Assembly: GCA_021730205.1 (NCBI GenBank)
Contig: CP072533.1
Span: 773,380 to 837,379, forward strand
From: Candidatus Ruthia sp. Cpac_8_S14
GTDB taxonomy: Bacteria > Pseudomonadota > Gammaproteobacteria > PS1 > Pseudothioglobaceae
Length of the DNA: 64,000 nt
Direction of reading: 5' to 3'
Shown here: piece after piece, positions 1 to 17,750 of the stretch
Layout of the letters: each line of letters opens with the position of its first letter
How positions within the stretch are numbered: position 1 is the stretch's first letter
Program-made: the position numbers and the translations under genes
The notes under the pieces: generated by a model
What the model was told of the DNA's origin: nothing
The model's database searches: none
The model's input: the letters and a program-made list of their open reading frames with translations, nothing else

Positions 1-39
1 CCATATCCTGATGTTCGAAATCAATTAATATTTTATCTA

Positions 40-628
40 CTATGGCTTCACACTCATGTCTGCATGAAGGCGATTGTCATAAAGGATCTTTAGTAGTAAA
101 TCATCCAAATCTCTTAATAAATCTAGTACACTTTTGTCATTTTGCAATGGAAGGGCTAAAACCCCATTTGGAAGTTCCATTGCTTACGTTAATTCTTCAA
201 CAACAAAAGTAGGCAATAAACCATAGTGTATTGCATGATCAACAGAAATAATAACCAGTGCATTAGTTAATTCGGATTTCTAAATTTAACAAACAATTAC
301 TCTGAGTATCGAGATTTTTGATGTTGATATAACGATTAATCGCCGATTTACAATGCGCTTTTTTGGTTAACAGTATTTTAAAATTAGGATTTTTATCATT
401 TTTATTAATAATCACTCTTGTAATTTTAGATAAATCTTGGAAATGGTCTTGGATAAGTGCTTCAGCAATATCAACTCGGTATCTAATTGGTTGTTGCCAA
501 CGTCTTAATTTTGTTTGTCTTAACTAATACTCGTTCTTAGATTGCCATGGTGCCAATAAGTCAGCACATACAATGTTTGAGTAAAAACAAACTAATAATA
601 TCCACACTCCACTCAAACGATATTTAAT
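40..628 (-). pseudogene. DUF2927 family secreted protein, pseudogene
   Basis: On the minus strand, fragments in two frames rebuild one secreted protein. A hydrophobic leader (LSGVWILLVCFYSN) is followed by RRWQQPIRYRVDIAEALIQ and, in a second frame, by EELT-stop-AMELPN and LDDLLLKILYDNRLHADM. The last two blocks match the C-terminal pattern of DUF2927 proteins (EELTQALGLPND, then LD-LLL-LYDPRL-GM). In-frame stops at about 524-526 and 184-186 and a frameshift near 265-280 show that the gene is dead. It starts where the HlyD-type gene stops, so it was probably the last gene of the type I secretion operon. The function of DUF2927 is not known to me. Confidence 0.6.
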
Positions 629-1797
629 TACTTCTCGTTAAGAGCGCCACTAAAGCCACGACTAATTGGCTTGGTTAAATAAGTGAATAAAGAACGCCTT
701 CCGACTTTAACATCAATCGTGCCTGACATGCCTAATTTGACATTAATCGCCTTGGATTTGACATTATCTTCATGCTCTGGCCCTTCAATTTTAACATTTA
801 CTTGATAAAAAGTCGTTTGTCTTCCAGAAGAGTCTTTATCTAACAAAGTGTCCGAACTGATGTAATTTAGTGTGCCTTTTAAACCACCAAAAATAGTATA
901 ATCAAATGCATCAAGTTTAATCACCACTGGCATGCCCAATTTTAGTCTACCAATATCAACAGGATTAATTTTTGCTTCTAAAATAACACCACCTTGAGAA
1001 GGGGATATTTCCATCAATTGCTCTCCAGCACGTAAAACACCACCAACAGTGGTTACTTTTAGCTCTTTAACAATACCTGATACAGGTGAATAAATATCAG
1101 TATATTCTAAGACACTTTTTTGTTTTTTAAGTTTATATAGATTTTTAGCCAACTCACCCTCCAACTTTTCAATTTCGGCACTGATTCTTCCGTAATATTT
1201 ATTTTTAGTATCTACCAATTTACGCTTAAAGTCTAATACTTTCTGTTTAGCTCTTAAAACTTCTAACTGACTAACATCACCTGTTCTTTCTAAACTTTGA
1301 GTAATTTCCCACTCCTCAGTACTCATTGCAAGACTTTCCTCCAGCATGGACACCTTTTGATTTAAAGAGCGCTTCTTTTGAACATACAAAGCTTTTTGTG
1401 TACTCATAAAATGAGGATAATCTTGGGTTAATTCATCAAATACAATGGGGTTTTCTAAAATTTCTGCATTGGCTCTTGCCAATGCAGACTTCAAATATGC
1501 TACTTGAGACCTTACCTCGTAATAACTCGCCTGTGCACGATCTTTTTCAAGCGTTGCTAGAAGTTGCCTCTGCTTAACGTGCTCACCCTCGCTAACTAAT
1601 AATTTAGATAAAACACCGCCATCAACCACTTGAATAATTTGGCTACTGTTATTAGCAACCACTTTACCTTGACAACGAACTGTTTCATCAATATCAAATA
1701 ATGATGCCCATAGTATAAAAGCAATGAAGCCGCCTAATAAAACATAAATAATCGAAAATGAATGCTCAATTTTTGACAAAATTTTCTCTAAATTCAT
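628..1797 (-). CDS. HlyD-family type I secretion periplasmic adaptor
   Basis: This 389-residue membrane-fusion protein would bridge the inner-membrane ABC exporter and the TolC-type outer-membrane channel. A single N-terminal membrane segment (about residues 15-32, IIYVLLGGFIAFILW) is followed by a short lipoyl/biotinyl-like half (GKVVANNSSQIIQVVDGG), a long coiled-coil hairpin (about 95-240) and the second half-motif (YSPVSGIVKELKV), then a C-terminal beta-barrel region with GQ-like GMPVVIKLDAF. This order is typical of HlyD/LapC. The start overlaps the ABC transporter stop by 4 bp (ATGA), so the two are translationally coupled. The length is normal and no lesion is visible. The likely cargo is the giant repeat protein at 9255-16943. 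Confidence 0.9.
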   Translation of the reverse strand: MNLEKILSKIEHSFSIIYVLLGGFIAFILWASLFDIDETVRCQGKVVANNSSQIIQVVDGGVLSKLLVSEGEHVKQRQLLATLEKDRAQASYYEVRSQVAYLKSALARANAEILENPIVFDELTQDYPHFMSTQKALYVQKKRSLNQKVSMLEESLAMSTEEWEITQSLERTGDVSQLEVLRAKQKVLDFKRKLVDTKNKYYGRISAEIEKLEGELAKNLYKLKKQKSVLEYTDIYSPVSGIVKELKVTTVGGVLRAGEQLMEISPSQGGVILEAKINPVDIGRLKLGMPVVIKLDAFDYTIFGGLKGTLNYISSDTLLDKDSSGRQTTFYQVNVKIEGPEHEDNVKSKAINVKLGMSGTIDVKVGRRSLFTYLTKPISRGFSGALNEK

Positions 1798-3887
1798 GAC
1801 TTGGCCTCTTGTACTTTACCAGAAAGTTGTGCAATTACACCAACCTTTGGTCCATCCATCACTATTTGGTTTTTATTAACAACAATTAAACGGTCAACCA
1901 ATTCTATCATTTCCATTTTATGTGTTACCAACACCAACGTATCTTCTGCCTTTATTGTTTTCTTAAACATGTTGATTAACAACGCTTCTAAGTTACGATC
2001 AACAGATGCAGTTGGTTCGTCTAATAACCATATTTTTGGTGCTCGTAAAACTACCCGAGTTAAATTAAGTAATTGCTTTTGCCCACCAGACAAACCTAAC
2101 CCACCTTCAGATATTTCTTGTTCTAGCCCTTTTTCAGTAGTAGAGATAACACTATTTAATAAGCCTGTTAATTTAGATACTTCCAAAATTTTATCATCAC
2201 CCGGATCGAGCAAACCTAAAATTAAATTTTCTCTAAGTGTGCCTTTGAATAGTCGCCCTTCTTGTTGTAAAAAACCAATTCTTTCAGCTAGAACAGGTTT
2301 TGAAATATGGGCCAAATCAATATCATCTAATAAAATCTGACCAACATTGGGCTTATACATACCACTTAACAAACGTAATAATGATGTTTTCCCAGAGCCA
2401 ATAGGTCCTAAAACACCAATTTTTTCACCTGGGTTGATTTTCATTTCTGGCAAAGTTAAAGCCACCTTTTCGCCATAATTTATTTGTGTTTTTGCTTCAA
2501 CACAAAATTCACCACATATATTTTCAGGCACAATAGGCAAGTCTATACCATCATGGTCACATTTTAAATCCCAAATCACATCTAATGATCTAACTGCTGA
2601 CTCAGTATTTGCCCATTGAACTAGGTGAGATGGAATTTGTGCAACAGGTGCCAAAATTCGACCTGACAAAATAGAGCAAGCAATTAATCCACCCATGGTC
2701 AAACCTCCACCACTAATCAATAACGCACCTGATGCTATCATCAGCACAAACGAAGATTGTTGAAAAAATGCTACCATATACTGAGATTGGTCAGTCATTC
2801 GCTTCATCTCTAAATCATAACCACGGCCTTCGTCAGTGATATTCATCCAATTAGAAAGCATGCGCCAACCACCTTGGCCCGATTTGATCGTTTCAGCCCC
2901 TTCAATTGACTCCACTAATAAACCCACTTTAAGATTAACAGATTCATTAATACTATCTGCTAGCATTTTTATTTTCTTATGGAAATATAATCCTGTTAAA
3001 GTTGCTATAAAAAAAAATATCATAGGTACCAAGACCAAATAACCACCAATAGCGGCGATTAATAAAACATAGAACAGCACAAATGGAACGTCAACCACCA
3101 GATAAGTCGTAATGGCAGATAAAAAACTACGTACTGACTCATAACCTCGCATTTGCGAAGCCAAACTACCCACACTTCTTGGCAATTGATCCATTCGTAA
3201 TGCCAAAAACCGTTTGTATACATCTCTAGATAGGCGTCTATCTATATTATCAATTAACTTTTCGTACAGCCCTGCACGCACTAACTTAGCAATAAAATCT
3301 AATACAATTATTGCTAATACGCCTATTGTCAACACCAATAAAGTTTGTTGAGCGCCTGTTGGCACAACGCGGTCATAAATCTGCATAGAATAAAAAGCAC
3401 TAACCACAGCCACAATATTAATCAAAATTCCTGCTAAAGAAGCGTCAATTAGCCATCTCTTATGGGTAATTAATTCAGTTTTAACCATTTGAAAGATTCG
3501 ACTATTACCTGCATCGAATTTTTTCTTCATTTTTATGGCAAAAATTTCATACTCATCCAAATCATCAAGTATTACTTCTAACCAAGTATTCTTCTCTTTA
3601 GAGAACCATTCTGCCACCCATTCGCCTTTGGTATTAAAACTTTTAAGAATGCCCCATTGCTGAAATTCATCAAAAATCAATAAAGGCAACAAAGAGGGGT
3701 CATTAATAGATTTTAATGCTTTAGGATTAGGAATTAATAATGCATGGCATATATTATGCAACATTACCAATTTTTCAATTAAGCCATTACATTCATCCTC
3801 AATAACCTGTTGTAATTCTAATGCATCAAAACGAGACCTTTGCAACTGCGATAAACGCTGCAAACTAAATAATAAACTTTGCTCCAT
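1794..3887 (-). CDS. LapB-type type I secretion ABC transporter (permease/ATPase)
   Basis: This 697-residue exporter energises type I secretion. Residues 1-130 resemble a degenerate C39-peptidase-like domain without an obvious catalytic Cys, as in LapB/HlyB exporters that do not cleave their cargo. A six-helix ABC membrane domain follows (about 145-430), then a nucleotide-binding domain with Walker A GPIGSGKTSL, signature LSGGQKQ, Walker B IWLLDEPTA and the H-loop VTHK. It is coupled by a 4-bp overlap to the HlyD-type gene downstream, and the tolC-type gene lies about 580 bp upstream on the same strand. All catalytic motifs are intact, so the system looks functional. Confidence 0.92.
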   Translation of the reverse strand: MEQSLLFSLQRLSQLQRSRFDALELQQVIEDECNGLIEKLVMLHNICHALLIPNPKALKSINDPSLLPLLIFDEFQQWGILKSFNTKGEWVAEWFSKEKNTWLEVILDDLDEYEIFAIKMKKKFDAGNSRIFQMVKTELITHKRWLIDASLAGILINIVAVVSAFYSMQIYDRVVPTGAQQTLLVLTIGVLAIIVLDFIAKLVRAGLYEKLIDNIDRRLSRDVYKRFLALRMDQLPRSVGSLASQMRGYESVRSFLSAITTYLVVDVPFVLFYVLLIAAIGGYLVLVPMIFFFIATLTGLYFHKKIKMLADSINESVNLKVGLLVESIEGAETIKSGQGGWRMLSNWMNITDEGRGYDLEMKRMTDQSQYMVAFFQQSSFVLMIASGALLISGGGLTMGGLIACSILSGRILAPVAQIPSHLVQWANTESAVRSLDVIWDLKCDHDGIDLPIVPENICGEFCVEAKTQINYGEKVALTLPEMKINPGEKIGVLGPIGSGKTSLLRLLSGMYKPNVGQILLDDIDLAHISKPVLAERIGFLQQEGRLFKGTLRENLILGLLDPGDDKILEVSKLTGLLNSVISTTEKGLEQEISEGGLGLSGGQKQLLNLTRVVLRAPKIWLLDEPTASVDRNLEALLINMFKKTIKAEDTLVLVTHKMEMIELVDRLIVVNKNQIVMDGPKVGVIAQLSGKVQEAKS

Positions 3888-4201
3888 ATATGTACTATTA
3901 AAGGTTACTTAGAAAATTTAGAAGTAATTTTTTTCACTGCTTGATTTCAATTGATTATTTTGGTTTGGCCAAATTTTACCAAAAGAGCGCCCTGAAAGTA
4001 TCGTGACAATTACACCCGACACTAAAATATATTTAACTAAATTATAACGCTGTAACACTCGTTAGTATATTTTTTTCACTTTACATTCACTTCAAAAAAA
4101 TATTAATACTGCTTGCTTTCTACGTCATATAATCTTTTTAGTAGACTGTCTGTTGTTAAGAAGACTCTTTGTATTTAATTTGATTTTAAATATTTTTTTC
4201 A
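3888..4201. other. Gap between tolC-type and ABC transporter genes
   Basis: These roughly 310 bp lie between the last codon of the tolC-tail reading frame and the start of the ABC transporter. I see no coding similarity on either strand. The sequence is very AT-rich with long T runs. Any promoter for the lapB-hlyD pair should lie here, but I cannot single out a convincing -35/-10 pair. Confidence 0.4.
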
Positions 4202-4467
4202 TTAAGGTTTTTTTTGATCTTCTTCCTCTTTCTTAAACGTTGTGTATTTTGTCTTGAACACTTTTAACATTTTTAAATTCAAAAATTTTATTAAGATGTT
4301 GATACTGAGAGTTAACATTATTTTTGCTCCATACATTTTTTTACCTAAAGCATTAGATATGGCTTTAACTGCTCCATTTTGTTTTCTTCCTGTAATTAAC
4401 GCTTTTTTCTTTTGATTAGTTTTTGAATGGCATTGCTTTGTTTTTTTATCCTGTTCTTGATTAATAC
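4202..4467 (-). pseudogene. Out-of-frame basic tail downstream of the TolC-type gene
   Basis: Directly after the TolC-type stop, the -1 frame stays open for about 88 codons, to a TAA at 4202-4204. It encodes a very lysine-rich sequence (KKTKQCHSKTNQKKKALITG, later KKEEEDQKKP). It has no good start codon of its own. It joins the TolC frame if the A7 run at 4476-4482 (minus strand) is read as A8, so it may be the lost C-terminal tail of that protein. It could equally be a chance open frame in AT-rich DNA. No function is proposed. Confidence 0.35.
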
Positions 4468-6072
4468 TTATCTGCTTTTTTTGCGTAATGTACCCTCTAC
4501 CGGAGCCGTCTTTGTTGTCTTTTTTTGAACAACAATTTTAGTTAATTTTTCACGACTGGGCTTTTCTTCTTCATCAAAAAGTTCTACAAATGTTACGAAA
4601 TCTCTTTTCTTTAAAGAGGATTTAAAGTTTTGGATGCTATCAATATCAAAATACCAGATAATTTTTTCTACCGGCTTTTCATCAGGTATAACAAAATTTA
4701 GCATTTTATCAATGTCACTTTGCTCTTCTTTAGGGCTCATTGTTGGATGCCACAATATCTTATCTGTTCGATTAAATGTTAAACTTTCATTAAAACTTGT
4801 CACAACAGCGCCAATATCTTCAACATAGACAAAAATACGCCAATTGGCTAGTATTATCTCGCCGTAAACACTAGCCAATTGAGATTCCAATTGAGAAACT
4901 TCACGAATGGAGTTCATAACATCTTGCCATGTTTTTCTACCTGCCAAGAATTGTCGATAATAGGATTTCCGTACTTTTTCTGTATTGGCTAGTGATGACT
5001 CAAGCAATGTTTTTTGTTTTTTCAAAGAGATGGAAGACATCCAATCTAGCTCAATTTGCTGCGCGACTTTATTTTCTTCGTCTTTAATTTTTGCTTGTAG
5101 AGACTGATAGCGACTCTTAATTTGTCTAATTTGTGAAAAATTAGACAAACCTGCGCCAAAACTACTGTTAAGTTCAATAAAAACGCGATTCTCAGTCTTG
5201 GCACCCTTATCAGTAAAGCTACCCCACTGGCGTTCTAATTTAAGATTAACATCTGGATAAAGTTTGGCATGAGTTTGATCCAGTTCAGCCTCGATCACTA
5301 AGCTTTCCGCTCTAATTTGCTTAATTCTAGGATTAGTTAATAATGCCCTTTTGCTTAATTTGGCTTGACTAGTTTCAAACTTAACAATGCTAAAGTCTCT
5401 AATCAAATCTTTTGGATCTAGCGAAGTGCCCAATAGCTCTTCCAAATTAAGCAGACTATTTTCATGTTGAATAATAGCCGAATTAAGGCCAGCTTCTGCC
5501 TGAGTTGAGCGTGAATTTGCCAAATTTAAATCACTACTAGAAGACAACCCTTGTTTAATACGACGCCTTAGACGGGCGCGCAATATATCATGCTCCTCTT
5601 GACTCTTACTATACGACTTTTTTTTTAAATAACTGTCATACCATTTACTATAAGCATTGATTACTTTTAAAGCCAAATCTTGCTGTGCGGCCTTAGTTGA
5701 TGCCTGAGCTGATAAAAGCTGAGCTCTTGATTTTGCCAAACCTGCATCAATAGATCCGCCCGCCCAAAGTGGTTGCGTTAAACTGATAACTGAAACACGA
5801 CTATCACTATTTTTATAACTAAGGTCTGTACTAGAACTGTCAACTTGACTTACTGAAAACCTAGGGGTTGGAAAATATTGCCATTTAGCACTGGTAATCT
5901 CATTTTTAGCAGCCTCCTCTAAGAAAACATTACTTTTAATAGAAGGGTGGTAGGTAATTGCCTTATTAATTAAATTAGATAAATTAAACTCACCTTTTGA
6001 TTGCTCTTGTGCGCTCGCACTATCAAGAAAGAGATCAAAAAATAATAATAATACAACCGTTCTTTTAATCAT
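4468..6072 (-). CDS. TolC-family outer-membrane efflux protein for type I secretion
   Basis: This outer-membrane channel subunit completes the type I secretion system. The reading frame opens at a GTG at 6090, but the ATG at 6072 begins a clean signal peptide (MIKRTVVLLLFFDLFLDSASAQ is split here as MIKRTVVLLL then FFDLFLDSASAQ) and is preferred. Two long helical OEP repeats (about 40-230 and 245-430) contain typical motifs such as SLTQPLWAGG and LAGRKTWQDVMNSIREV. After about residue 430 comes an unusual charged extension of roughly 100 residues that ends at RKKSR, next to the A7 run that may have cut it short. It lies 3 bp and in the same frame downstream of the decayed adhesin copy, so the two formed one transcription unit. 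Confidence 0.85.
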   Translation of the reverse strand: MIKRTVVLLLFFDLFLDSASAQEQSKGEFNLSNLINKAITYHPSIKSNVFLEEAAKNEITSAKWQYFPTPRFSVSQVDSSSTDLSYKNSDSRVSVISLTQPLWAGGSIDAGLAKSRAQLLSAQASTKAAQQDLALKVINAYSKWYDSYLKKKSYSKSQEEHDILRARLRRRIKQGLSSSSDLNLANSRSTQAEAGLNSAIIQHENSLLNLEELLGTSLDPKDLIRDFSIVKFETSQAKLSKRALLTNPRIKQIRAESLVIEAELDQTHAKLYPDVNLKLERQWGSFTDKGAKTENRVFIELNSSFGAGLSNFSQIRQIKSRYQSLQAKIKDEENKVAQQIELDWMSSISLKKQKTLLESSLANTEKVRKSYYRQFLAGRKTWQDVMNSIREVSQLESQLASVYGEIILANWRIFVYVEDIGAVVTSFNESLTFNRTDKILWHPTMSPKEEQSDIDKMLNFVIPDEKPVEKIIWYFDIDSIQNFKSSLKKRDFVTFVELFDEEEKPSREKLTKIVVQKKTTKTAPVEGTLRKKSR

Positions 6073-6093
6073 TTCCAAGTCTACAAACACAAT

Positions 6094-7470
6094 TTAAGTT
6101 ATTCTCGTAATATAACCCTCATCAGTGCTTCCAGAGCTAGAATAAGCAGTGTCATCGCTAATGTTGATATTGTCAATTTGAGATTCAAAACCGCTAATAA
6201 AATTATTAGCTACACCTGCATTCTCGTCTTGTTCATCTGATTTTTTCGCACCTGCAATTAGATCATTTGCTACATTTTGATTTAATTTACCATTAACTAA
6301 TTCGTTCAACACTTGGTTAATAAATTTAGGAATTGTAAGATCACCATTTTTATCCCTTGTTTCCATACCAGAAATAGCTGTCAAAGCATAACCTAATGCT
6401 TGCTCATCCTCAATTACATCAATATTGGTAAACTTATCGTCTTTTTTAGTATTAACCAGTGCAGGCCTGGTGGTAATAATATCGTCATTCAAACCAAATG
6501 CTATGGCAATATTCCCATTATCAGTGCTAATTTGAGCAGACGTAAAATCTGATAAACCAGTGTCTACATTATTACTATCTTGAAATAATTGACGTGTGGC
6601 TATTTCAGTTAACATATTGAGATTAATAGTTATGTTATTACTATTTGAGTTAGCAATGGCGCGCAAATCTACGCTTAAATCTTTGTTTTGACTGTACCCT
6701 TCATCTAAATAATCTACGCCTGTTCTTGTATTTTTCAAGTGAATAAGAATATTACCCGTATAGGCTTCATTGACTTTTATCGTAAACGAGCCATCGTCTT
6801 TAAAATTAATTGTTGTTTTTAATATCTCTCCATTCTTATCATAAACCTCAATTGTATAGCTACTCACATCAAAAACTTGTCCTGGATTAATACTACCTAG
6901 AATGGTAAATATAGTTGGATCGCCACCAGAGGTAAAACTAGAACCGCCGCCTGCCAGTCCAAGCGCACCTAGGGCACCCGCACCCAAAGTCGATAATGAC
7001 CACGAAGAGTCTAGACTCACGTGCGATTGACCTAAAAATTGCAACAACGCGTTATCACCAGAGGCTATTTCTTGAAGCACGGACTTATCATCATAAATAT
7101 AAACAATCTCAGTATCATCGGCCAAAACCATAGATTAATTGCCAACAATATGACGCAACACCCTTACCCTTGAAGCAGACAAAGAAACCACACAACTCAA
7201 ATCAATACAGGCTGAAAAATAACCATCAAAAACAACCGTGGTAGAGTCATCTAATAATAAAGTTAAATCATCGCCTACCTTCTTGGCAATAACATCAAGA
7301 TCCATATCTATTGTTATTTTGTTGAAAAATAATTTAATAAGCTTCACCGTGCTTAACCTGAATATACTTGTCTTGAGTCTGATTAACAACAATATTTTTC
7401 TGCTTTAGGGCGCCAGAATTAATTGCTTGTTGTGCTTTATTGTTGTTTATTTTCCACCACATTTCCTTAT
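6094..7470 (-). pseudogene. Truncated N-terminal paralogue of the giant adhesin, interrupted
   Basis: This gene copies only the first 430 or so residues of the giant repeat protein at 9255-16943. Matching blocks in order are KVGDDLTLLLDDSTTVVFDG (giant: KVGDDLEVLLSNDTTVVFDG), a Gly-rich linker (GALGALGLAGGGSS), a regulatory-type beta domain, and IAFGLNDDIITTRP with an SG-MET/VDSDKNGD block. A TAA at 7135-7137 splits it in frame, and upstream the frame is broken again: QKNIVVNQTQDKYIQVKHG is in a different frame, with a stop after GEAY. The 346-codon part from ATG 7131 is open and could still be translated. It has no Ig repeats and no secretion C-terminus, and runs into the TolC-type gene. Confidence 0.75.
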
Positions 7471-7535
7471 AAAAACTTTGAATACTCCAACTTAGGAAAT
7501 ATTAATTTCATTAGAATTATGCACGCTAAACTTAG

Positions 7536-7679
7536 TATAATGCCAGATCCCGGCATTATACACAATCAAAAGTTTATTTTTCCCATAAATTGCCAAACTC
7601 AATAAGTCGTCTTTGATAGAAATGATTATTTACATGATATTGTAAATAACTTAGAGTGCCAAATTATATTAATAATTTG
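7536..7679. repeat. Cluster of three short perfect hairpins
   Basis: Three inverted repeats stand in 144 bp upstream of the decayed adhesin copy. TATAATGCC (7536-7544) pairs with GGCATTATA (7552-7560). TTATTTACA (7626-7634) pairs with TGTAAATAA (7641-7649). CAAATTAT (7660-7667) pairs with ATAATTTG (7672-7679). None is followed by a clear T-run terminator on either strand. They could be operator sites or parts of an old mobile repeat. The rest of 7470-7770 shows no gene. Confidence 0.5.
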
Positions 7680-7770
7680 ACTGCTAAATTTAACAAAAAA
7701 ATATCAATTTTATACATATATGTGCAAATTAAAGCCATAATTAATAAATGAGTATTACACCTCACATATA

Positions 7771-8040
7771 TCAATCGACACCTCTATTCTTTGTCATAAT
7801 TTTTTGGAAACGCCCTGTGAATGTTTTTAAGCCTTCTTGCTTTTCTGGTAAGAATTCACTATGGTTATAATGTTTAAAGTCAATGGCGCCCCGCCCGTAT
7901 AAGTAAACGGCCAGTTCAGATCTTGTGTGGTTTTTCGCACTTTTTCTAAAATAGCAAGTGTCGTTTTACTTAAAGGCATAACATGTTCTTTAGTCCGATT
8001 TCCCTTGCAATCTATAAAGAATAACTGTACAACGTTGAAA
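7771..8040 (-). pseudogene. Tyrosine recombinase (integrase) remnant
   Basis: One minus-strand frame reads CKGNRTKEHVMPLSKTTLAI followed by LEKVRKTTQ. This fits the segment of P4-type phage integrases around MK-R-H-VPLS-QALEIL. A second frame adds HYNHSEFLPEKQEGLKTFTG and stops at 7771, which could be the enzyme's tail. The catalytic R-H-R-Y residues are not all present, so this is an inactive scrap. A 90-codon frame covers part of it, but it mixes coding and non-coding sequence. It suggests that this island once arrived by site-specific integration. Confidence 0.5.
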
Positions 8041-8249
8041 ATCATAATCAAACCAGCAACAAGCCAAAAATTGTTTGGAACGCTGACCATCGCAAGCAAT
8101 AACTAATTTAATCGCATGAGAGCTAGCAGATCTACACTAGGAATGACACCAAAATTTTACCTCAAACGACGTCGTTTTAGTAGATACCTCAGAGGGAAAT
8201 AGACACCACAAACTAAGTCATAAGCATCCCTAGAAGTTTGGGTAAAAGT

Positions 8250-8616
8250 TAGACTGTATCCATCACCCCCCATCTTCTGGAATCAATGTCATAGATATCA
8301 CTGCAGTTCGTTTACAACTGAATGCAGGAGCAGTTGAAGACGCCAATAGCAATTCTCTAGAGGCTTATGATGCAGGCCGACGCCCCATTATCATTAAGTT
8401 TACAAAATTCTTCAAATTAGTAGTTTATTTAGCTCAAGTTCAGACCTAGAGTACTTTACTGTAGCAGGCAAAACCTTTGATGCAACAGCAACAATCAAAC
8501 TAGACAATAGTCATTACTTTGGTGATGGTGCAACCATTGTTGCCACCAATACAGTGAATGGTTTAGCGACTCAGTTTAAGATTATCTTAGGCACAGGAAG
8601 TAATTTTAAATTATAA
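8250..8616 (+). pseudogene. Fragment of an Ig-like repeat adhesin
   Basis: On the plus strand, opposite to the adhesin genes around it, the frame reads SSGINVIDITAVRLQLNAGA, then VEDANSNSLEAYDAG. This matches a repeat of the giant protein (PPFGFNAIDVTAVRLKIEKT) coded near 12.87 kb. Upstream, a run of six C residues breaks the frame just before SSG. Downstream, another frame gives YFTVAGKTFDATATIKLDNS and ends at TAA 8614-8616. Several frameshifts make it a relic of a second large surface protein or of an inverted duplicate piece. Confidence 0.55.
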
Positions 8617-8635
8617 TGATAATTTTAATTATTTA

Positions 8636-8926
8636 CTATATACGACTACGCCAATAATTTGGCTTTCTACTATTGTGCATAACCACTACGATAGAAATAA
8701 TATGATGATCCTTGCGATAAATCACGGAAAAGAAAACTTACTGAGTAAAAATCGATGGTAGTGTCGATTAAAACTTGGCCACGTATTAGGCAACTCTATA
8801 ATAGCTTTATAGCTAAGTTCTAACTCGTGTAAAATTCTCACCCAGTCCATCATCTTGGCTTTGGTACCATTTATAAGACGCTTTTATTTCAAGCGTAACA
8901 TCAGAGTGAAATATCAAACTAACCAC
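8636..8926 (-). pseudogene. RelE/ParE-type toxin, frameshifted
   Basis: Starting at a GTG inside the antitoxin end, the frame encodes VVSLIFHSDVTLEIKASYKW then YQSQDDGLGENF, typical of ParE/RelE toxins. A shift leads to LHELELSYKAIIELPNTWP, and a further shift to FSVIYRKDHHIISIVVVMHN, followed by SRKPNYWRSRI. Joined together, these cover a full-length toxin of about 95 residues. Two frameshifts mean that no intact toxin is made. It overlaps the antitoxin gene, as is usual for such pairs. Confidence 0.7.
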
Positions 8927-9077
8927 TTTGGGATTCGGCCAATTTTGCCCAAATTTCATCTATATTTTTATCCTGTTCTGACTCTAATAAAGAGATTAAA
9001 CAATGAGTCATTAGCGCTTTTTCACTTGAAGAAAGTGCACCAATATTTTCAACAATTTGCTTAAATACAACTGACAT
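8919..9077 (-). CDS. Addiction-module antitoxin, small
   Basis: This 52-residue open frame (MSVVFKQIVENIGALSSSEK ... EIWAKLAESQSG) resembles short antitoxins of the putative addiction module component family (TIGR02574-like), in which a helix with a LS-EKALL-like pattern precedes an EIW/E-A-R-R tail. It precedes and overlaps the broken ParE-type toxin gene. The antitoxin is intact, but with its toxin dead it is probably a leftover. It is too short for most gene callers. The family assignment rests on pattern and context. Confidence 0.55.
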   Translation of the reverse strand: MSVVFKQIVENIGALSSSEKALMTHCLISLLESEQDKNIDEIWAKLAESQSG

Positions 9078-9254
9078 GTAACCCCCAATATTTAAATATC
9101 TTTGACGAATTTTAACACATCAATATCAAGTCACTAATATAAGCAATGGTTATAAAAATTTCACAATAAAATTAGGCACTATCAATATTCCATTGTTACT
9201 ACAAAAGATAGGCTAGTCATTTATCAAACATCAATAATGAATGACTAAACAACA

Positions 9255-12200
9255 CTACTCAAGCACCAAGTTACCATCACTAATCATGGTAAGCAAATTA
9301 GCCCCAATCACGCCTGTTAAGGTAATGCTAATATCTTCATCAGCAAATGCACCACCGACGGTACCATTCTTACTAGTACTAATGAGCGTGTTACCACCAC
9401 TTTCAATTAAGTTAATAAAGTTAGTTAAGTTTGTAGAATTATAACTGGTGAATAAGTCTTTAAGGTTAAGGGTGTCTTTGCCAACACCAGTGCCGATGGT
9501 AAAGTCAGCAATGCTATCAGCACTGCTGCTTGCTGCGGCATCACTCCATGATTTATAGACAAAGGTGTCGTTGCCGCCTCTGCCATAAACTGTTTCATTG
9601 GAGGAAGACATATTAATGATGTCGTTGCCTATTGTGCCAAAGTTCACAACTTCTTGGGTGGCGTTGTAGTTAAGTGTAGTACCTTCATAGATAATACTAT
9701 CACCGGTGTCCATCAGAACACTTAGGATAGAAACATTTGTGTCTAGTTGTGTGTTGTTGATGGTGAGTGTGTTAGTTTCGCCATTTCGCATGTGGATTAA
9801 TTCAATAGAGTTTAACGCTACTATGATTGTGTCTAAGTTGCTTGAGGCACCTGATAGAATCACTGTATCATAACCAACTTTACCATCAATGCTTGCTAAT
9901 GTAGTCTCCCCCGCGTAGGTAAAGGTGTCGTTGACATCGGTGCCTACAAAAGCCGTTGGGTCTGTTGCAGTGGTGCTGGAATTATTGGTATAGAACAAAA
10001 ATTCACTAATCATCCCTGATTGAAAACCTGAGCCCCCATATCCAAAAGTTGCAAGATACCAAGTAAAACCAAGAATTAAAGCTGAATCCAATAAATTGTC
10101 ATCAGCCCCTTTAACTTCACCATCAACAAAAATAGCTTGTTCTGCATCTACTTTATTTTGAGTAAGGGTTCCAGAACCACTATGATTATAGTTCGCTGTA
10201 AACACCAATTGTTGCACTTGATTTACTGTTTGGATATTAGCAACAGATAAACGAGCGTCACCGACTGCCGAGCCGGCATCCCAATAAGTTATTCCAGTGC
10301 TCCACGGAGCATGTACTGATATACGACCAGTGCTTACAGCAGTTCCTATATTTACCAGAGTTCCGTTAGAAGTAGCGGCATACTGATAAGTAAAATACAT
10401 CTCTATGTTAGTAGCACTTCCCCCGGTTCCGGACATGCTCATCCAGTCATCATTACTACCATTCAATCCTTGATTAAAACTGATAGTCGTTGCCCCATCT
10501 GATGTGATAACAAGTTGCCCATCATTCACAATCACCCCTTGTTTGCTATTGATAGTTTGTGTTAGGTCTCTCCCTCTAGCCGACTGATCACACCAAGTCG
10601 TGATATAACCTGTGTCTCCTGTACCTGTGCCAACAAAATCTAGCAATGCCTGCGTGTCCAAATTACCATACCTATTAAACCCAATATCCAACTCAGCATC
10701 ATCACTTGAACGCCTAACCCTAATCGCATTACTTGCTAAGTCTGCATTTATATCTTTTAGACTAAACGCACCACTCATTGCTGAGACATCCACCTCACTA
10801 ATCTCACCAATACCCGTTGCCTTAGAAATTGCACCCTCTGTTGGATTGGTTAAATCAACAATGATGTTCTGATTCACTTCTTTGTAGTAATCACCATTTA
10901 CTATAAAGGTAATCTCCTTAAAACTTTCACCTACTGCAAAAGTAACTATGCCACTTGCATCTCCACCTCCGTCTACTGAATAGTCATCATCAATACCATC
11001 AGTCGTACCACCTGACTTAGCCAAACTTAATGTCGTATCTACTGCATAATCAATTGTCCCTGTTGCTGACAAATCCCCCTCTCTAGTCACCATAAAGGTC
11101 ATGGTCTTCGTTCCTGTTGTGCCTTCAATCACTCTTGAGTCAGAGATAGAGTAAGAAGAGTCTTGTTTGGTTGCTGTTCCTGTTCTAGTTGTCATGTTAC
11201 CTGTAGCATCGGTGATGCTTACTTGAACACCCAGTTGAGTATCAATATTTGCAAAGGTAGGTGCAATGCCTGAGATAAGTGAGGCAGCATTGGTTAAGTC
11301 TAACGTCCAGTTACCACTGGCATCACTAGTAACTGTGTAAGTGGCATCATCATAGCTATTGTCATTATCTGTATCTAGTTTAATCTCTACAGCTATGTAG
11401 GCACTAGTCTGTCCTGTGATGGTTGGCAAGTCAGTGATGACTTCATCAATCACTACAGTGCTAACAGGTGCTGTCTTATCTACAGTGGTATTTTGTGATA
11501 GTTGTGTGGCAGGGTTGCCATGGTCATCACTGGCATTAACAGTGACTGCATAAATTGTACCTTCCGTTAGCGCGCTTGTGTCTGTTGAAGGAATACTAAC
11601 ATTCCAATTGCCACTAACGTCTGTCACTGTTGTTGTATAAGTTTGAGTGTTAAGTACAATATTCACCTCTCTGTCTATTGCTAAGCCTGTAGAAGTGCCT
11701 GTGATACTAAAGCCACTGGCAGACTCAGCAATGTTAATGACATTGTCTATTGCAATATTACCTATTAAGCTCAGGGTTGGTACATCAGTATCAACCTTGA
11801 CTATTTGTGTGCTTGATGCGTTTATGTTAAGAGCACTACCTATACTACCTGTGACATCGGATTGTATGGTGTAGCTATTCCCATTGGTAAGTCCACCATC
11901 ACTGATGGTGGCTGTCCATATGCCTGTTGCATTATCATAAGTAGTGCCTGTAAATACTACATTGCTACTATCAGAAACCTTAGTCGCTATCACACTAAAG
12001 TCACTAAGCAATAAAGCACCTAAGATAGCAGATGTACTACCAATGGTTACTGCAATGGTAATGTCAGTGGCATTCTCTATCGCGTTAACCTTGTTGTCTG
12101 TAGCAACTGCAATGGTGGCATTCATTTCATTCACAGTAACGTTCCAAGCAGTGTTGCCAGTAATGGTAGTAGATTCATTACCTGCAGTGTCTTTAAAAGC

Positions 12201-15200
12201 ACCTGCATCTATTTCAACATAGTAACTTGTTCCTGCGACTAACTTAATATCGGTTGGGTTAATGGTGACCACACCTGCAGCATTAATACTAACTTGTACG
12301 CCACTATCTACTGCAATGGTTTCTATCACAGTGTCATCACTAAAGCGTTTAATAACAATGTTCTTACCTGTCACTGCATTCATACTCTCTGCAAAGGTTA
12401 AGACAAAGTTGTCTGTGCGAGACATTGTACCACCATCTGCAGGAGAAAGCGTTGGTGTGTCAACGGAAGTATTAACCGTAATATCAGTAATGTATTTAGT
12501 GATATTACTGGTTTGCCCTGCATTGTCCGTTTGTCTAACTCGAATAAGATTAGCACCATAAGTGCCCGCTGCTAAAGTAAAGCTAGTCACAGCACTGTCT
12601 GAAACAGTTGTCCAGTTCACACCACCATCAATACTATATTGCCATGAAGCAAGATCAGCAGCAAGATTAGTAACATCCATCACGCCATTATTAGTAATAC
12701 CGTCAGCAGTGCTTGTACCCGTGTCTGTATTTAGAGTGAAGGTTGGGGCAGAAGGTGGCTGAGTATCAAAACTTTGGGCATCAGCAATATCTTGAGTATG
12801 ATTGATATCAAAAGGGTCGTTGCCATAGATATCTGTCAAGCCTGTTTTTTCTATTTTTAGACGTACCGCAGTAACATCAATGGCATTAAAGCCAAAAGGT
12901 GGGGTGACTGAAACAGTCCATTGAGTGCCAGAACTCCCTGAGAGCTCAGCAAGGGTGCCTATGGCCCAGTCCATGGTATCTATTACTCCCCCTGAATTAT
13001 CTACTAAAGCGATGTCGTTTGAGGTGAAACTCGAATTTACACCGTGACTGAAAGTCACGGTGTAAGTTACTGTCCCAGATGTGACTTCTTGTCCAGACTG
13101 ATCATGGTTATCTGTCACACTAGTAATGGTTGGGGCTACTGTTGCAACAATAATAGATTTAGCTGATGAAGTGGCTGTATTATCATTAGTATCAGTTGCT
13201 GTGGCGGTGATGCTTTCTGAGCCTTGACCCATGGCAGTGATGTCTGCGTCTGTTAATGTATAGCTCCAAGTTGTGCCTGTAACTGCAATAGTTCTAGTGT
13301 TGCCGCCGATAGATAATGTTACAGTGCTATTAACTTCGGTTGTGCCTGTAATAGCTGAGTTTTTCTCAGATAAATTGACTACATCATCTGTAGCTATTGT
13401 ATTAATAGTTGGTGTTATCGGAGCTATTTGATCAATTAAAACTTGTGTACCACTACCAGTACCCATAATACCACCACTTGCAGCTAAACTCATTTCAATT
13501 GTATAGGTTTCTCCGTCTACTAAAAATAAAGTAAGAATATTAGCATGCGTTAATTCCCAAGTACTATCGTTGGTATCACCGCTTAAAGTTGGCATACCGC
13601 CAGAGTAAGTAATATCATTATCACTTCCACTTGCCGCTTTAAAAACTATGCCATCTATAGTAACACCAGTAGCTGCATCACCTATATTGGACAAAGTCCC
13701 TTTAATAGATAAAGCACCAAATTCAGCAATATTAATGCCATTTGATGATACATCAGTTGAGCTATTAGACCATATGGCAGATGTTGTTAAAGCGGCTGCG
13801 GTGAATGCCCAATCTGCTGCGTCAGTAATACCAGCATATTCATTACCTGCTATGTCTTTAAAAGTGCCAGTTGCTATTGTTACATAATAATCTGTATTAG
13901 GCTCTAAATCAACAAATGGATCAATTGTTACTGTGCTGCCAGTAATGCTCACAATTCCAGTAGCATCATTGCCAATAATAGTAGTGTGGGCAGCTGTCGC
14001 TTCACCAACTTTATAAATTTTGATTTCTTTGCCGTCAATCTTTATAACGTTTGCATCAAATGTCATGATTAAGTTTTCTGCTGGTGCTATATTACTACTG
14101 AGTGTTGCTGTTGGTGCAGTTGTGTCAACAACGATAGCGCTTATATCTGAAATGTTACTACCAGAAGGTAATTTGTTGCTAGTCATTGCATTGCCTGTAA
14201 CATCAATTACTGCATCTGCTCCCATTCCGGTTACAAAACTAACAACGCTAAGGTCTGCAGTGTTATCAGATGAATCGACAGTATAAGTACCTGTTAGGGT
14301 AGCGCCGTCTACAGCAATAGTTAATACTGAAGTGCCATCTGAGTTTAGTGTTACTGTAATTTTACCGCCCGCTTTAATTGACTCACTTACTGTAGCAGTG
14401 ATATTAATTTTGCTACCTACACCATGAGAACCACCAACTGTGCTTGAGGTGAATGAGGTGATAGTAGGGGGTATATAGTCAATGGTTATTGCATCTAATA
14501 GAGTGGGTTGGGAGTCATTATCATACTCGTCTACTTTTTTAACCTGTACTTGGCTTTGCACATAAGATTGACTTGATAGTTCAAATGATGAGCCTGAGCC
14601 TTTTTTCCAATTTTCACCACTATCAGTAGAGTACTCCCAAGTGACGCCGCCAGTTACATTAATTACTTTATTACTGGTAATTTTATCACCAACAGCCCCT
14701 GTGTCGCCATCAGATGCAAGTGTTAATGTGGCATCGGCAGTAGCAGTTGATACATCTATTGATGCCACATCGTAATGAGAAAGAGTTACGGCATTTGAGT
14801 CATCTTGACCTGCTACTTTAACCTTGATATTGCTTTGTAAAATATCACCTGTTTCTTGTCCTGGAGTTAATAATTCAAAACTACCATTGCCTGTATCACC
14901 TGGATTCCAATCTGTGCCGCCATTAATTGTGAACTCCCAAGTAACGTCAGAGCCAGTAATTACATTAATAGTGGCATCTTTTGTTTTACCATCTATATCA
15001 TTACCTGTATCGCTATTAAGGCTTAATGCTAGACTTGATCCTGTAATTTCTACAGCATTTTTAAGTACTGTAGACTCATTGCCTGCAGCATCTATTTTTT
15101 TAATTTGTATTTGATTTGCTGCATGGACGACATTAGCAGCCAAAGAAAAGCTAGTACCTACACCTACTTTCCAAGTGCCATCGGCCCCATTTTCAGTAGA

Positions 15201-16943
15201 GTACTGCCAAGTATTGCCGATTGCTATTCCTGCTACATCTATCACTGAGGTGCTAGACAAACTTAGTGCTGTTGAGGTGAGTCTATTTGGCGCCTCTCCA
15301 TCAACAAGAATTGTTCCACTACCTAATATCACTTCAGCACCATCTTTACCAGAAAGGCTGCCAGTAGGTCGAACCATAATGTGTTCTTTGTTGTAGGGAT
15401 TTGCGTTTTCGGCTAAATTAAAGCCAGCACCAAGCTCAGCATCTGTAACGCCTTGAGCCCAACTCACACCATCATTAGTTGAATAAAACCAATCTGAACC
15501 AACACCAACAACATTAATTCTTATATTGCCAGTAGCAGTAGTGCCAACAGTCGGGTTACCATCAGCATCGATAGCCTGAACAATACCATCTGTTGCACTA
15601 GTGCCTGTATCTTCAAAACCTAAAGTAATTTCAATGTTACTAGAACTGTCAATAGCATCAGTACTTTTAATGGCAGCGGCTAACCCTGAACCAACATTAA
15701 TCTTGCTATTGCTTGTTTCGGTTTTAGAGGCACCAGCAAGCAAATCTTCTTGCCCATCTGTGGTTAGTTTTAAATCAGCGCCCGTGCCTGTTAATTCTTC
15801 TTCAAACTGCGTAATGGTTGCAGCCATATCACCTGAGTTTTTGTCTGAGTCTACACCAGATAATGCTGCTAAAACATTACCATAGGCATTGGAAGTAGAG
15901 GTTTCGCCATCTTGTGTTGTTACTGTTTGTACTCTAGTGGTGACCACATCAGCATCATTGCCCAAACCAAAGGCCTTAGCCACGCCTTTATTGGTGTCAT
16001 TAATAGTGGATGCATCTAGCGTTACCCCTGTAGGTAATTCACCGGACGTGGTTAAATCCATTCTAAGTGCAGCTATGGTTGTTAATGGTGTAATACTAAC
16101 GTCAATATTACCACCTTTAGAGGTGTCAATAACTGCTAGTAATATAGCAGATATGTCGGTATCCACGCCCGTTGCTTCGTCTCTAAAATCAGCGTTGTCG
16201 CCATTAGTATCAATTAATTTGGCAACAATAATGCCTTCATAACTACCAATAGAGAAATCTTGCGCGCCTGAATTGTTAAGACCCACGTCCGTAAGAAAAT
16301 CTAACCTTCCAGTGGCAGAATTGTATTTGTATAATTTAACAAGTCCACCATTATTTTCAATAAACTCACCTGCACTAGCGACTATCTGAAGAACAACATC
16401 TCCCAAAGAAGAAATGCCGTTGCCACCTGCACCTGCTAAGCCACCTAATACTTCACTACTATCTATACTTAAAGATGAAAAAATACCAGTAAGATAAACT
16501 TCGTTAAAGCTCTCAGAAAACAACGCAGATTGATGAGTAGCGATGGCTGATAATGCAGATTCATCGCCATAAAAATGAATGATTTGTGAGCTATCAGCAA
16601 ATGTGACAAAATTACCCTCAACAACATGATAAATGCCACCTTCGCTTGGTAAAGACACTAAACAAGACAAATCACTTGCACACACTTCAAAATATCCATC
16701 AAACACGACAGTAGTATCATTAGATAACAACACCTCCAAATCATCGCCTACTTTTCTGGCAATTAAGTCAAAGCCTTTGCCATCTTCAATGCTTAGCTCA
16801 TAGGCACGACCTGGCACGACCCTAATGTGTTGCTCACCTTTGGTGACAATAACAACTTCTTTACTTAGCGTTTGGAAAAGAACTTGTGCTTGAGTTTGCA
16901 ATGCTTTTAATTGTGCCGTTGTTTTTGTACTGTTAGTTTTTAT
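9255..16943 (-). CDS. Giant BapA-type Ig-repeat adhesin with type I secretion C-terminus
   Basis: This cell-surface or secreted protein of about 2560 residues is the probable cargo of the nearby type I exporter. An N-terminal BapA-prefix-like domain (about 1-105, KVGDDLEVLLSNDTTVVFDG) is followed by a Gly-rich linker and a D-rich domain shared with the stub at 6094. Then come many Ig-like and Big_5/SwmB-type repeats (about 430-1900; recurring WQYS-DGG-NW, FKDTAGNES, DTTAPTATLS). A Calx-beta-like domain sits at about 1915-2035 and an arabinofuranosidase-B-like beta-sandwich at about 2040-2300 (IRVRRSSDDAELDIGFNRYG, WCDQSARGRD). The end has a single RTX-like motif (GRGGNDTFVY) and a VCA0849-type secretion signal. 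TTG at 16901 gives the longest conventional frame. The frame extends to an ATA at 16941-16943 behind a good Shine-Dalgarno site, which is the start used here. Confidence 0.85.
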   Translation of the reverse strand: MKTNSTKTTAQLKALQTQAQVLFQTLSKEVVIVTKGEQHIRVVPGRAYELSIEDGKGFDLIARKVGDDLEVLLSNDTTVVFDGYFEVCASDLSCLVSLPSEGGIYHVVEGNFVTFADSSQIIHFYGDESALSAIATHQSALFSESFNEVYLTGIFSSLSIDSSEVLGGLAGAGGNGISSLGDVVLQIVASAGEFIENNGGLVKLYKYNSATGRLDFLTDVGLNNSGAQDFSIGSYEGIIVAKLIDTNGDNADFRDEATGVDTDISAILLAVIDTSKGGNIDVSITPLTTIAALRMDLTTSGELPTGVTLDASTINDTNKGVAKAFGLGNDADVVTTRVQTVTTQDGETSTSNAYGNVLAALSGVDSDKNSGDMAATITQFEEELTGTGADLKLTTDGQEDLLAGASKTETSNSKINVGSGLAAAIKSTDAIDSSSNIEITLGFEDTGTSATDGIVQAIDADGNPTVGTTATGNIRINVVGVGSDWFYSTNDGVSWAQGVTDAELGAGFNLAENANPYNKEHIMVRPTGSLSGKDGAEVILGSGTILVDGEAPNRLTSTALSLSSTSVIDVAGIAIGNTWQYSTENGADGTWKVGVGTSFSLAANVVHAANQIQIKKIDAAGNESTVLKNAVEITGSSLALSLNSDTGNDIDGKTKDATINVITGSDVTWEFTINGGTDWNPGDTGNGSFELLTPGQETGDILQSNIKVKVAGQDDSNAVTLSHYDVASIDVSTATADATLTLASDGDTGAVGDKITSNKVINVTGGVTWEYSTDSGENWKKGSGSSFELSSQSYVQSQVQVKKVDEYDNDSQPTLLDAITIDYIPPTITSFTSSTVGGSHGVGSKINITATVSESIKAGGKITVTLNSDGTSVLTIAVDGATLTGTYTVDSSDNTADLSVVSFVTGMGADAVIDVTGNAMTSNKLPSGSNISDISAIVVDTTAPTATLSSNIAPAENLIMTFDANVIKIDGKEIKIYKVGEATAAHTTIIGNDATGIVSITGSTVTIDPFVDLEPNTDYYVTIATGTFKDIAGNEYAGITDAADWAFTAAALTTSAIWSNSSTDVSSNGINIAEFGALSIKGTLSNIGDAATGVTIDGIVFKAASGSDNDITYSGGMPTLSGDTNDSTWELTHANILTLFLVDGETYTIEMSLAASGGIMGTGSGTQVLIDQIAPITPTINTIATDDVVNLSEKNSAITGTTEVNSTVTLSIGGNTRTIAVTGTTWSYTLTDADITAMGQGSESITATATDTNDNTATSSAKSIIVATVAPTITSVTDNHDQSGQEVTSGTVTYTVTFSHGVNSSFTSNDIALVDNSGGVIDTMDWAIGTLAELSGSSGTQWTVSVTPPFGFNAIDVTAVRLKIEKTGLTDIYGNDPFDINHTQDIADAQSFDTQPPSAPTFTLNTDTGTSTADGITNNGVMDVTNLAADLASWQYSIDGGVNWTTVSDSAVTSFTLAAGTYGANLIRVRQTDNAGQTSNITKYITDITVNTSVDTPTLSPADGGTMSRTDNFVLTFAESMNAVTGKNIVIKRFSDDTVIETIAVDSGVQVSINAAGVVTINPTDIKLVAGTSYYVEIDAGAFKDTAGNESTTITGNTAWNVTVNEMNATIAVATDNKVNAIENATDITIAVTIGSTSAILGALLLSDFSVIATKVSDSSNVVFTGTTYDNATGIWTATISDGGLTNGNSYTIQSDVTGSIGSALNINASSTQIVKVDTDVPTLSLIGNIAIDNVINIAESASGFSITGTSTGLAIDREVNIVLNTQTYTTTVTDVSGNWNVSIPSTDTSALTEGTIYAVTVNASDDHGNPATQLSQNTTVDKTAPVSTVVIDEVITDLPTITGQTSAYIAVEIKLDTDNDNSYDDATYTVTSDASGNWTLDLTNAASLISGIAPTFANIDTQLGVQVSITDATGNMTTRTGTATKQDSSYSISDSRVIEGTTGTKTMTFMVTREGDLSATGTIDYAVDTTLSLAKSGGTTDGIDDDYSVDGGGDASGIVTFAVGESFKEITFIVNGDYYKEVNQNIIVDLTNPTEGAISKATGIGEISEVDVSAMSGAFSLKDINADLASNAIRVRRSSDDAELDIGFNRYGNLDTQALLDFVGTGTGDTGYITTWCDQSARGRDLTQTINSKQGVIVNDGQLVITSDGATTISFNQGLNGSNDDWMSMSGTGGSATNIEMYFTYQYAATSNGTLVNIGTAVSTGRISVHAPWSTGITYWDAGSAVGDARLSVANIQTVNQVQQLVFTANYNHSGSGTLTQNKVDAEQAIFVDGEVKGADDNLLDSALILGFTWYLATFGYGGSGFQSGMISEFLFYTNNSSTTATDPTAFVGTDVNDTFTYAGETTLASIDGKVGYDTVILSGASSNLDTIIVALNSIELIHMRNGETNTLTINNTQLDTNVSILSVLMDTGDSIIYEGTTLNYNATQEVVNFGTIGNDIINMSSSNETVYGRGGNDTFVYKSWSDAAASSSADSIADFTIGTGVGKDTLNLKDLFTSYNSTNLTNFINLIESGGNTLISTSKNGTVGGAFADEDISITLTGVIGANLLTMISDGNLVLE

Positions 16944-16954
16944 TACCTTTTCCT
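16941..16954 (-). promoter_or_regulatory. Ribosome-binding site of the giant adhesin facing an ATA codon
   Basis: Read on the minus strand, AGGAAAAGG is followed by TA and then ATA AAA ACT. The codons from this ATA (KTNSTKTTAQLKALQ) run in frame into the giant protein. The first standard start codon, TTG at 16901, has no Shine-Dalgarno sequence. The simplest reading is an ancestral ATG changed to ATA, which would lower but perhaps not abolish translation. Confidence 0.5.
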
Positions 16955-17000
16955 ATTGTTGTGTTTTTTTATTTATTTCTTTTATTGTACTTGAGTTTTT

Positions 17001-17032
17001 CGGTGTTTTACTCGTAATAACAATAAACACCG
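17001..17032. terminator. Hairpin after the DUF6502-like pseudogene
   Basis: CGGTGTTT (17001-17008) pairs with AAACACCG (17025-17032) around a 16-base loop. It spans the stop of the decayed regulator. The flanks are AT-rich but have no long T run. It may be a weak terminator that separates the regulator from the adhesin. Confidence 0.35.
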
Positions 17033-17604: not shown

Positions 17605-17750
17605 AGTTCGCTATTACATAGACAAAAGTTATTTGTGCAAGTTTATTTTTAACTTTTTTGTATTGGTGGTTTGTTGGGTATAAATTTAAACAGGCGTTCT
17701 TAGTCAGGTATTGAGGTTTTCAGTGCTTAAAATCTTAAGATAAGAACTAG

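What the first reader, a model, noticed from the sequence alone, without database searches (positions are those of the whole stretch)
6094..7470. N-terminus-only copy of the adhesin fused to the exporter operon
This copy keeps only the prefix, linker and first beta domain of the giant protein, has no repeats or secretion signal, and is broken by stops. It then runs in the same frame into the tolC-type gene with 3 bp between. It looks like the collapsed original passenger of the exporter operon, with the giant gene as the surviving paralogue. Alternatively, the open 346 codons may still encode a shortened product.
Basis: seen in the sequence. Interest (0 to 1): 0.5.

Follow-up and report, generated by a model that had tools for sequence, protein, structure and literature searches.

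The report
Decaying original cargo of an exporter
In a relative of deep-sea clam symbionts, the short gene beside a protein exporter is the wreck of the large surface protein that the exporter probably once carried and that related bacteria still have whole, while a neighbouring giant protein is probably the present cargo; this is ordinary gene decay in a small genome.

Summary
Window 6094-7131 (-) is the open 345-aa rest of a type I-secreted adhesin gene that once began near 7457-7462. Its prefix carries stops and frameshifts. An internal deletion joins the first beta domain to the last few codons, about 20 bp before the probable tolC start (ATG 6072, not GTG 6090).

Long orthologues sit directly upstream of tolC in a same-genus genome (1313 aa) and in two named mussel symbionts (1332 and 2060 aa). 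In a tree, the eight tolC-adjacent N-termini tested form one clade (100/100), apart from the giant's. The nearest genome, G036, lost the part the window kept and kept C-terminal pieces the window lost, so the window's deletion follows their split. None of 82 other genomes of the family showed this short gene.

Corrections: the giant is an old, separate paralogue, not a local duplicate; the '3 bp' rests on a doubtful start codon; nothing is fused.

Translation of the 345 codons is not excluded but unlikely: no secretion domain, weak ribosome site, absent from G036. The exporter genes and the giant's N-terminus remain under purifying selection; the same test on the short copy is inconclusive.

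The parts
7463..7620 (-). 5' leader of the original passenger gene, similar in relatives, with a Shine-Dalgarno-like stretch just before the old start
   Evidence: blastn to G039, G040 and, over 73 bp, G043 leaders; SD duplex -6.2 kcal/mol at the old start
7135..7462 (-). Broken prefix region of the original passenger: old start at about 7457-7462, 2-bp loss near 7440, stop at 7334-7336, 5-bp loss near 7310, stop at 7135-7137
   Evidence: DNA alignment with G039, G040, G043; translations
6094..7131 (-). Remaining open frame, 345 aa: end of prefix, linker and first beta domain of the original passenger; probable pseudogene remnant
   Evidence: ORF list; 72-82% identity to G039, G043 and G040 orthologues; tree
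6073..6100 (-). Footprint of the original 3' end of the passenger gene, joined to the first beta domain by an internal deletion of roughly 860 codons (counted against G043)
4468..6072 (-). tolC-type outer-membrane channel of the T1SS (probable start ATG 6072)
   Evidence: PF02321; TIGR01844 over residues 30-413, 135.5 bits, below its cut-off; start shared by 6 aligned genomes
3888..4467 (-). Remnant around an accessory gene that is a 370-aa ORF in G040 (lipoprotein-like start by eye, no Pfam hit); most of that gene is missing here
1794..3887 (-). T1SS permease/ATPase, LssB-like
   Evidence: TIGR03375 577 bits, below its cut-off of 693; PF00005 and PF00664
628..1797 (-). HlyD-type periplasmic adaptor of the T1SS
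   Evidence: TIGR01843 278.8 bits, above its cut-off
1..627 (-). Degraded relative of a DUF2927 gene that follows HlyD in G043
   Evidence: DNA match; PF11150 in the G043 copy
9255..16901 (-). Giant adhesin, 2548 aa, the surviving passenger-type protein
8934..9254 (-). Remnant of an addiction-module (antitoxin-like) gene between giant and original passenger; homologue in G036
   Evidence: 92% DNA identity; PF09720 in the G036 copy

Best explanation
The short copy is the pseudogene remnant of the exporter locus's original passenger, a large type I-secreted adhesin. Shown: relatives keep the gene long in this exact place, the window's copy descends from it, and it has lost the repeats, the secretion domain and an intact start. 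Inferred: that it was exported by this TolC-ABC-HlyD set; that an old paralogue, the giant next door, whose C-terminus is related, is the cargo that now keeps the exporter under selection; and that the original, once dispensable, decayed by point mutations, small indels and one large deletion between short matching sequences.
For: G043 (CP125320.1, Ca. Ruthturnera sp. Tsphm01) has one intact 1313-aa adhesin between nuoN and tolC with a T1SS_VCA0849 C-terminal domain. Orthologues next to tolC are 1332 aa in BHECKSOX2, 2060 aa in B. brooksi SOXC and an open frame of 2061 aa in the unnamed G052; in Ca. Thiodubiliella it is split into 561 + 619 aa. Tree of 31 N-termini: the 8 tolC-adjacent sequences in one clade, 100/100. 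The nearest genome G036 has no match to the short copy and keeps C-terminal parts (within G043 residues 1121-1273, plus the last codons) that the window, apart from those last codons, lacks. G037, G039 and G040 hold other broken versions. G041 has a giant remnant directly followed by the flank beyond HlyD. tolC and orthologous ABC are in 7 of 12 genus genomes and missing from the same 5. On the window's branch omega = 1 is worse by 25.4 log-likelihood units for ABC, 28.1 for tolC (first 420 residues) and 5.9 for the giant's first 420 residues.
Against: On the window's branch the short copy's omega is 0.43, not 1 (omega = 1 worse by 2.24 units), though that branch includes time when the gene was whole. 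Its rise over the other branches (0.21) is not special: ABC rises too, 0.20 against 0.08. Lesions cluster at the two ends: the 345-codon gap has p 0.007 for 5 or 0.002 for 6 uniform lesions. In two named mussel-symbiont loci with a more distant tolC (44%; L108, L111) no passenger of this family was found in the 133 and 1285 bp held upstream, and G044 has none in 588 bp, so the linkage is not universal. That the exporter serves the giant is not shown; the giant's C-terminus did not itself hit TIGR03661 at E 0.1 and is linked only through homology to C-termini of the passengers.
Confidence: 0.93

Rival explanations
1. The open 345 codons still make a shortened, non-exported protein from the internal ATG 7131, retained for some new role.
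For: The frame is open for 345 codons while both flanks are broken (p 0.007 or 0.002 under uniform lesions); omega 0.43 on this branch; under neutrality for the whole branch (about 140 substitutions) a stop-free frame has probability 0.02; G039 and G040 also have broken prefixes with long open bodies (867 and 561 codons stop to stop).
Against: No C-terminal secretion domain; weak ribosome site, -1.5 kcal/mol against -6.2 at the old start, although several other genes of the window score 0; the nearest genome G036 has no such segment; after about 40 neutral substitutions a stop-free frame still has probability 0.28.
Confidence: 0.05
2. The short copy arose by a recent tandem duplication of the giant's 5' end.
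For: The two genes lie side by side and share prefix and first domain.
Against: About 26-34% identity to the giant against 72-82% to tolC-adjacent orthologues; the tree places it with tolC-adjacent genes of two genera, 100/100; a footprint of the orthologue's 3' end remains beside tolC.
Confidence: 0.01
3. An assembly or consensus error in the window's genome makes an intact gene look broken.
For: Some lesions are small indels in an AT-rich genome; raw reads are not available here.
Against: A deletion of about 860 codons and two separate nonsense codons are not homopolymer errors; the exporter and giant genes beside it are open; related genomes show their own different lesions.
Confidence: 0.01

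Closest known systems
Type I-secreted large repetitive adhesins (the names BapA/LapA are recalled) with a TolC-ABC-HlyD exporter
   Same: The G043 orthologue has the prefix, Ig-like and SWM repeats above cut-off, and a T1SS_VCA0849 domain next to a TolC/ABC/HlyD set.
   Different: The window's copy has only the N-terminal part. The RTX-repeat hit of the G043 orthologue is below its cut-off. No LapG-type protease (PF06035) was found in the window's genome.
The hlyDB, tolC and calcium-binding hemolysin set of vesicomyid clam symbionts (BMC Genomics 2008, PMC2642828; two passages seen)
   Same: Probably the same exporter locus in the same group: reported in R. magnifica and two other symbionts, missing in V. 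okutanii.
   Different: The passages seen mention one hemolysin and no trace in V. okutanii; here two passengers are distinguished, and G042, an unnamed small genome, keeps a 149-bp match to the giant's leader beside nuoN.
Reductive genome evolution in clam symbionts (BMC Evol Biol 2011, PMC3202245; 12 of 26 passages seen)
   Same: For recA the paper proposes point mutations and small indels first, larger deletions later, with independent losses.
   Different: Here the decaying gene is an adhesin with a surviving paralogue, not a repair gene.

Membership tests
T1SS large adhesin passenger (ancestral gene) | N-terminal prefix domain and linker | tested here: met
   Homologous prefix, now in two frames
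T1SS large adhesin passenger (ancestral gene) | Tandem Ig-like or similar repeats | tested here: not met
   No hit in the window copy; PF13753 and PF19077 above cut-off in the G043 orthologue
T1SS large adhesin passenger (ancestral gene) | C-terminal T1SS target domain (TIGR03661) | tested here: not met
   No hit in the window copy; 47.8 bits in the G043 orthologue, above cut-off
T1SS large adhesin passenger (ancestral gene) | Linkage to ABC, HlyD and TolC genes | tested here: met
Pseudogene of the tolC-adjacent passenger | Intact orthologue at the syntenic place in relatives | tested here: met
   Single long frame next to tolC in G043, G052, G057 and G059
Pseudogene of the tolC-adjacent passenger | Disabling lesions | tested here: met
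   Two nonsense codons, two frameshifting losses, one large deletion
Pseudogene of the tolC-adjacent passenger | Neutral evolution after inactivation (omega near 1) | tested here: inconclusive
   omega 0.43 on a branch that includes the functional period; omega = 1 worse by 2.24 log-likelihood units
Pseudogene of the tolC-adjacent passenger | No protein product | not testable with these tools
   Needs proteomics or ribosome profiling
LapA/LapG-type releasable adhesin system | LapG-type periplasmic protease (PF06035; name recalled) | tested here: not met
   0 matches in the window's genome; of 14 control genomes 1 matched

The most novel reading that the evidence does not exclude
Prefix-less bodies of the old passenger are still translated in several of these symbionts: in the window, G039 and G040 the prefix is broken by different lesions while the body stays open (345, 867 and 561 codons), which could mean that selection keeps a shortened body protein after the prefix, and in the window the secretion signal too, has gone.
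Probability: 0.06. Interest if true: 0.45.

Novelty: new member of a known kind. Interest (0 to 1): 0.22.

Why it matters
It is a clear example of cargo turnover at a type I exporter during genome decay: two closely related genomes lost different parts of the same adhesin gene while the exporter and a second adhesin stayed. It lets the window's large deletion be placed after the split from G036, and it warns annotators that the 345-aa ORF is probably not a gene of its own. Otherwise it is ordinary pseudogene decay.

Tried and rejected
Recent tandem duplication of the giant was rejected by the tree. Assembly error was judged very unlikely; no reads were seen. The open frame alone was rejected as proof of a gene: simulation (600 runs each) leaves no stop with probability 0.28 after 40 neutral substitutions, but only 0.02 after 140. 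The omega test was too weak to decide. The lesion-clustering test treats lesions as uniform and independent, uses lesion counts that I set, and was made after seeing the ORF, so it is only a hint. The idea that the remnant is kept because its leader drives the exporter was not supported: G036 keeps open tolC and ABC genes and a HlyD that matches throughout in two adjoining stretches without a match to that leader; promoter-like patterns over 7380-9400 were near chance (12 against 9.0 +/- 3.0). A structure prediction of the 345 aa gave mean pLDDT 47.8, too low to use, so no fold search was made. A scan of genome contigs with the short protein confirmed no relative. I first took the fragment 7827-8099 to be integrase-like by eye; Pfam gave no hit, and the name is not claimed. 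Five paper searches were made; two listed nothing, 54 listed ten papers that I did not open, and from 52 and 53 I saw passages of three papers. The eLife paper describes, in a mussel symbiont, a hemolysin-like operon with type I secretion genes; I did not link it to this locus.

Full report
What is in the window. The ORF 6094..7131 on the minus strand has 345 codons. Upstream, recognisable prefix sequence continues to about 7462 but in two frames, with stops at 7334-7336 and 7135-7137. Pfam and NCBIfam give no family for the ORF apart from one Pfam match at E 0.1, below its cut-off. Downstream lie tolC (4468-6072), an LssB-like ABC permease/ATPase (1794-3887) and HlyD (628-1797), all open. Upstream, about 1.8 kb beyond the old start, lies the giant adhesin of 2548 aa (9255-16901), then nuoN (17751-19205). 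The ORF occurs once in the genome, which is a single contig of 1,184,132 bp, 99.98% complete.

The 3-bp gap is to a GTG at 6090 that the ORF finder chose mechanically. Six genomes aligned here share an ATG-ATT-AAA start of tolC, ATG 6072 in the window, so the gap is about 21 bp. In G043 the passenger's stop is 8 bp before that ATG. The shared frame in the window follows from the deletion and at least one extra base in the 3' footprint.

Relatives. The family search examined 83 genomes: 11 match, the window's own and 10 others. In the same genus (12 genomes with the window's) the state upstream of tolC is: G043 one intact 1313-aa gene; G040 a broken prefix, an inner deletion, and 551 aa open to the original stop including the C-terminal end; G039 a broken prefix, 856 aa open, broken C-terminus; G037 scattered fragments of both halves; G036 C-terminal pieces only; G044 no adhesin match in the 588 bp held before tolC; G041, G034, G035, G038 and G042 have no tolC match. 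Outside the genus the long gene sits directly before tolC in G052, G057 and G059, and in two ORFs in G049. Two more named mussel-symbiont loci, L108 and L111, have a close ABC (77-78%) but a distant tolC (44%), and no match to this passenger in the 133 and 1285 bp held before it. That Ruthturnera are clam symbionts, and that Ca. Ruthia magnifica's genome has the length of G037, I recall; no call confirmed it.

Ancestry. In a maximum-likelihood tree of 31 N-termini the 8 tolC-adjacent sequences, the short copy among them, form one clade (100/100); the 8 giant-type sequences of the genus group together (94/86) among paralogues of the second genus. Pairwise, the short copy is 82% identical to G040, 74% to G043 and 72% to G039, and about 26-34% to the giant. 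Barring transfer between genera, the duplication is older than the split of the two genera.

How it decayed. Against three orthologues the window copy has a 2-bp loss near 7440, a nonsense codon at 7334-7336, a 5-bp loss near 7310, a 6-bp in-frame gain and a nonsense codon at 7135-7137. Just before tolC it keeps a footprint of the original 3' end. Roughly 860 codons, counted against G043, are missing between. G040 on the N side and G036 and G039 on the C side share the seven letters GAACAAC where the window's junction falls; G043 does not. This suggests a deletion between short matches, but it is inference from proxies. G036 is the nearest genome by nuoN (95.9% DNA identity, the highest of 11) and by ABC (96.8%; G039 and G040 were not comparable in that table). 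The window keeps residues about 8-451 (G043 numbering), G036 parts of 1121-1273, and both the last codons, so their ancestor had both halves and the window's large deletion is younger than the split.

Selection. For ABC and the first 420 residues of tolC on the same four genomes omega = 1 is worse by 25.4 and 28.1 units, and for the giant's first 420 residues, on the branch since G036, by 5.9. ABC's omega is also raised on the window's branch (0.20 against 0.08), so the short copy's rise is not specific. Its branch includes its functional past, so the test cannot settle present use.

The exporter and its cargo. Full-length ABC orthologues (87% identity or more) are in 7 of 12 genus genomes and tolC in the same 7; HlyD was not searched genome-wide. 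The giant is a single open frame in the window, G036, G037 and G039 (2548, 2664, 2819, 2168 aa) and in two frames in G040. G043 has no giant at this place but three stop-free frames of 9,191 to 13,438 aa with giant-type N-termini elsewhere; G044 has giant-type N-terminal fragments on many contigs. Of the 5 genomes without exporter, G041 has only a giant remnant followed directly by the flank beyond HlyD; the other four have no adhesin N-terminus match, though G042 has a 149-bp match to the giant's leader beside nuoN. tolC is frameshifted in G037 and G040 after residue about 424-427, beyond the part that matches the TolC model (residues 30-413). These losses are few independent events, so the association of exporter and cargo is suggestive only. 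That the exporter now serves the giant is the inference that fits best.

Known or new. [quoted passage not shown] okutanii. PMC3202245 (12 passages seen) proposes, for recA, point mutations and small indels followed by larger deletions. The listings showed no title or abstract start that treats this decayed passenger; that is no proof that none exists.

Noticed in passing
G043 (CP125320.1), C1 about 2999, 179428 and 401663: Three stop-free frames of 9191, 13438 and 13226 aa begin with giant-type N-termini, together about 107 kb of a 1.52-Mb genome; two of them, and a third of 1261 aa, have nearly identical N-termini.
   Followed up: no
window 7827-8099 (-); L027 11478-11739: A 90-aa ORF between giant and short copy has a relative upstream of the G039 copy; it looked recombinase-like by eye but has no Pfam hit.
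   Followed up: partly
L045 13881-14243 (G036): An antitoxin-like N-terminus (PF09720) runs in frame into a remnant of the original passenger, probably a chimeric ORF made by a deletion; the antitoxin part also lies broken at window 8934-9254.
   Followed up: partly
window 3888-4467 and 1-627: Two neighbours of the exporter genes, a 370-aa lipoprotein-like gene (G040) and a DUF2927 gene (G043), are decayed here.
   Followed up: partly
L028 about 11820 and L026 about 8650: tolC is frameshifted at almost the same residue (about 424-427) in G037 and G040, just after the part matching the TolC model.
   Followed up: no
L118 4098-4236 (G042): A 149-bp match (70%) to the giant's 5' leader lies beside nuoN in a 1.03-Mb genome with no tolC or orthologous ABC match.
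   Followed up: partly
window 16902-17750; L045 4899-5534: A 211-aa ORF with a weak DUF6502 match (below cut-off) lies between nuoN and the giant in G036; the window's stretch is similar in DNA but no ORF of 120 aa or more is listed there.
   Followed up: no
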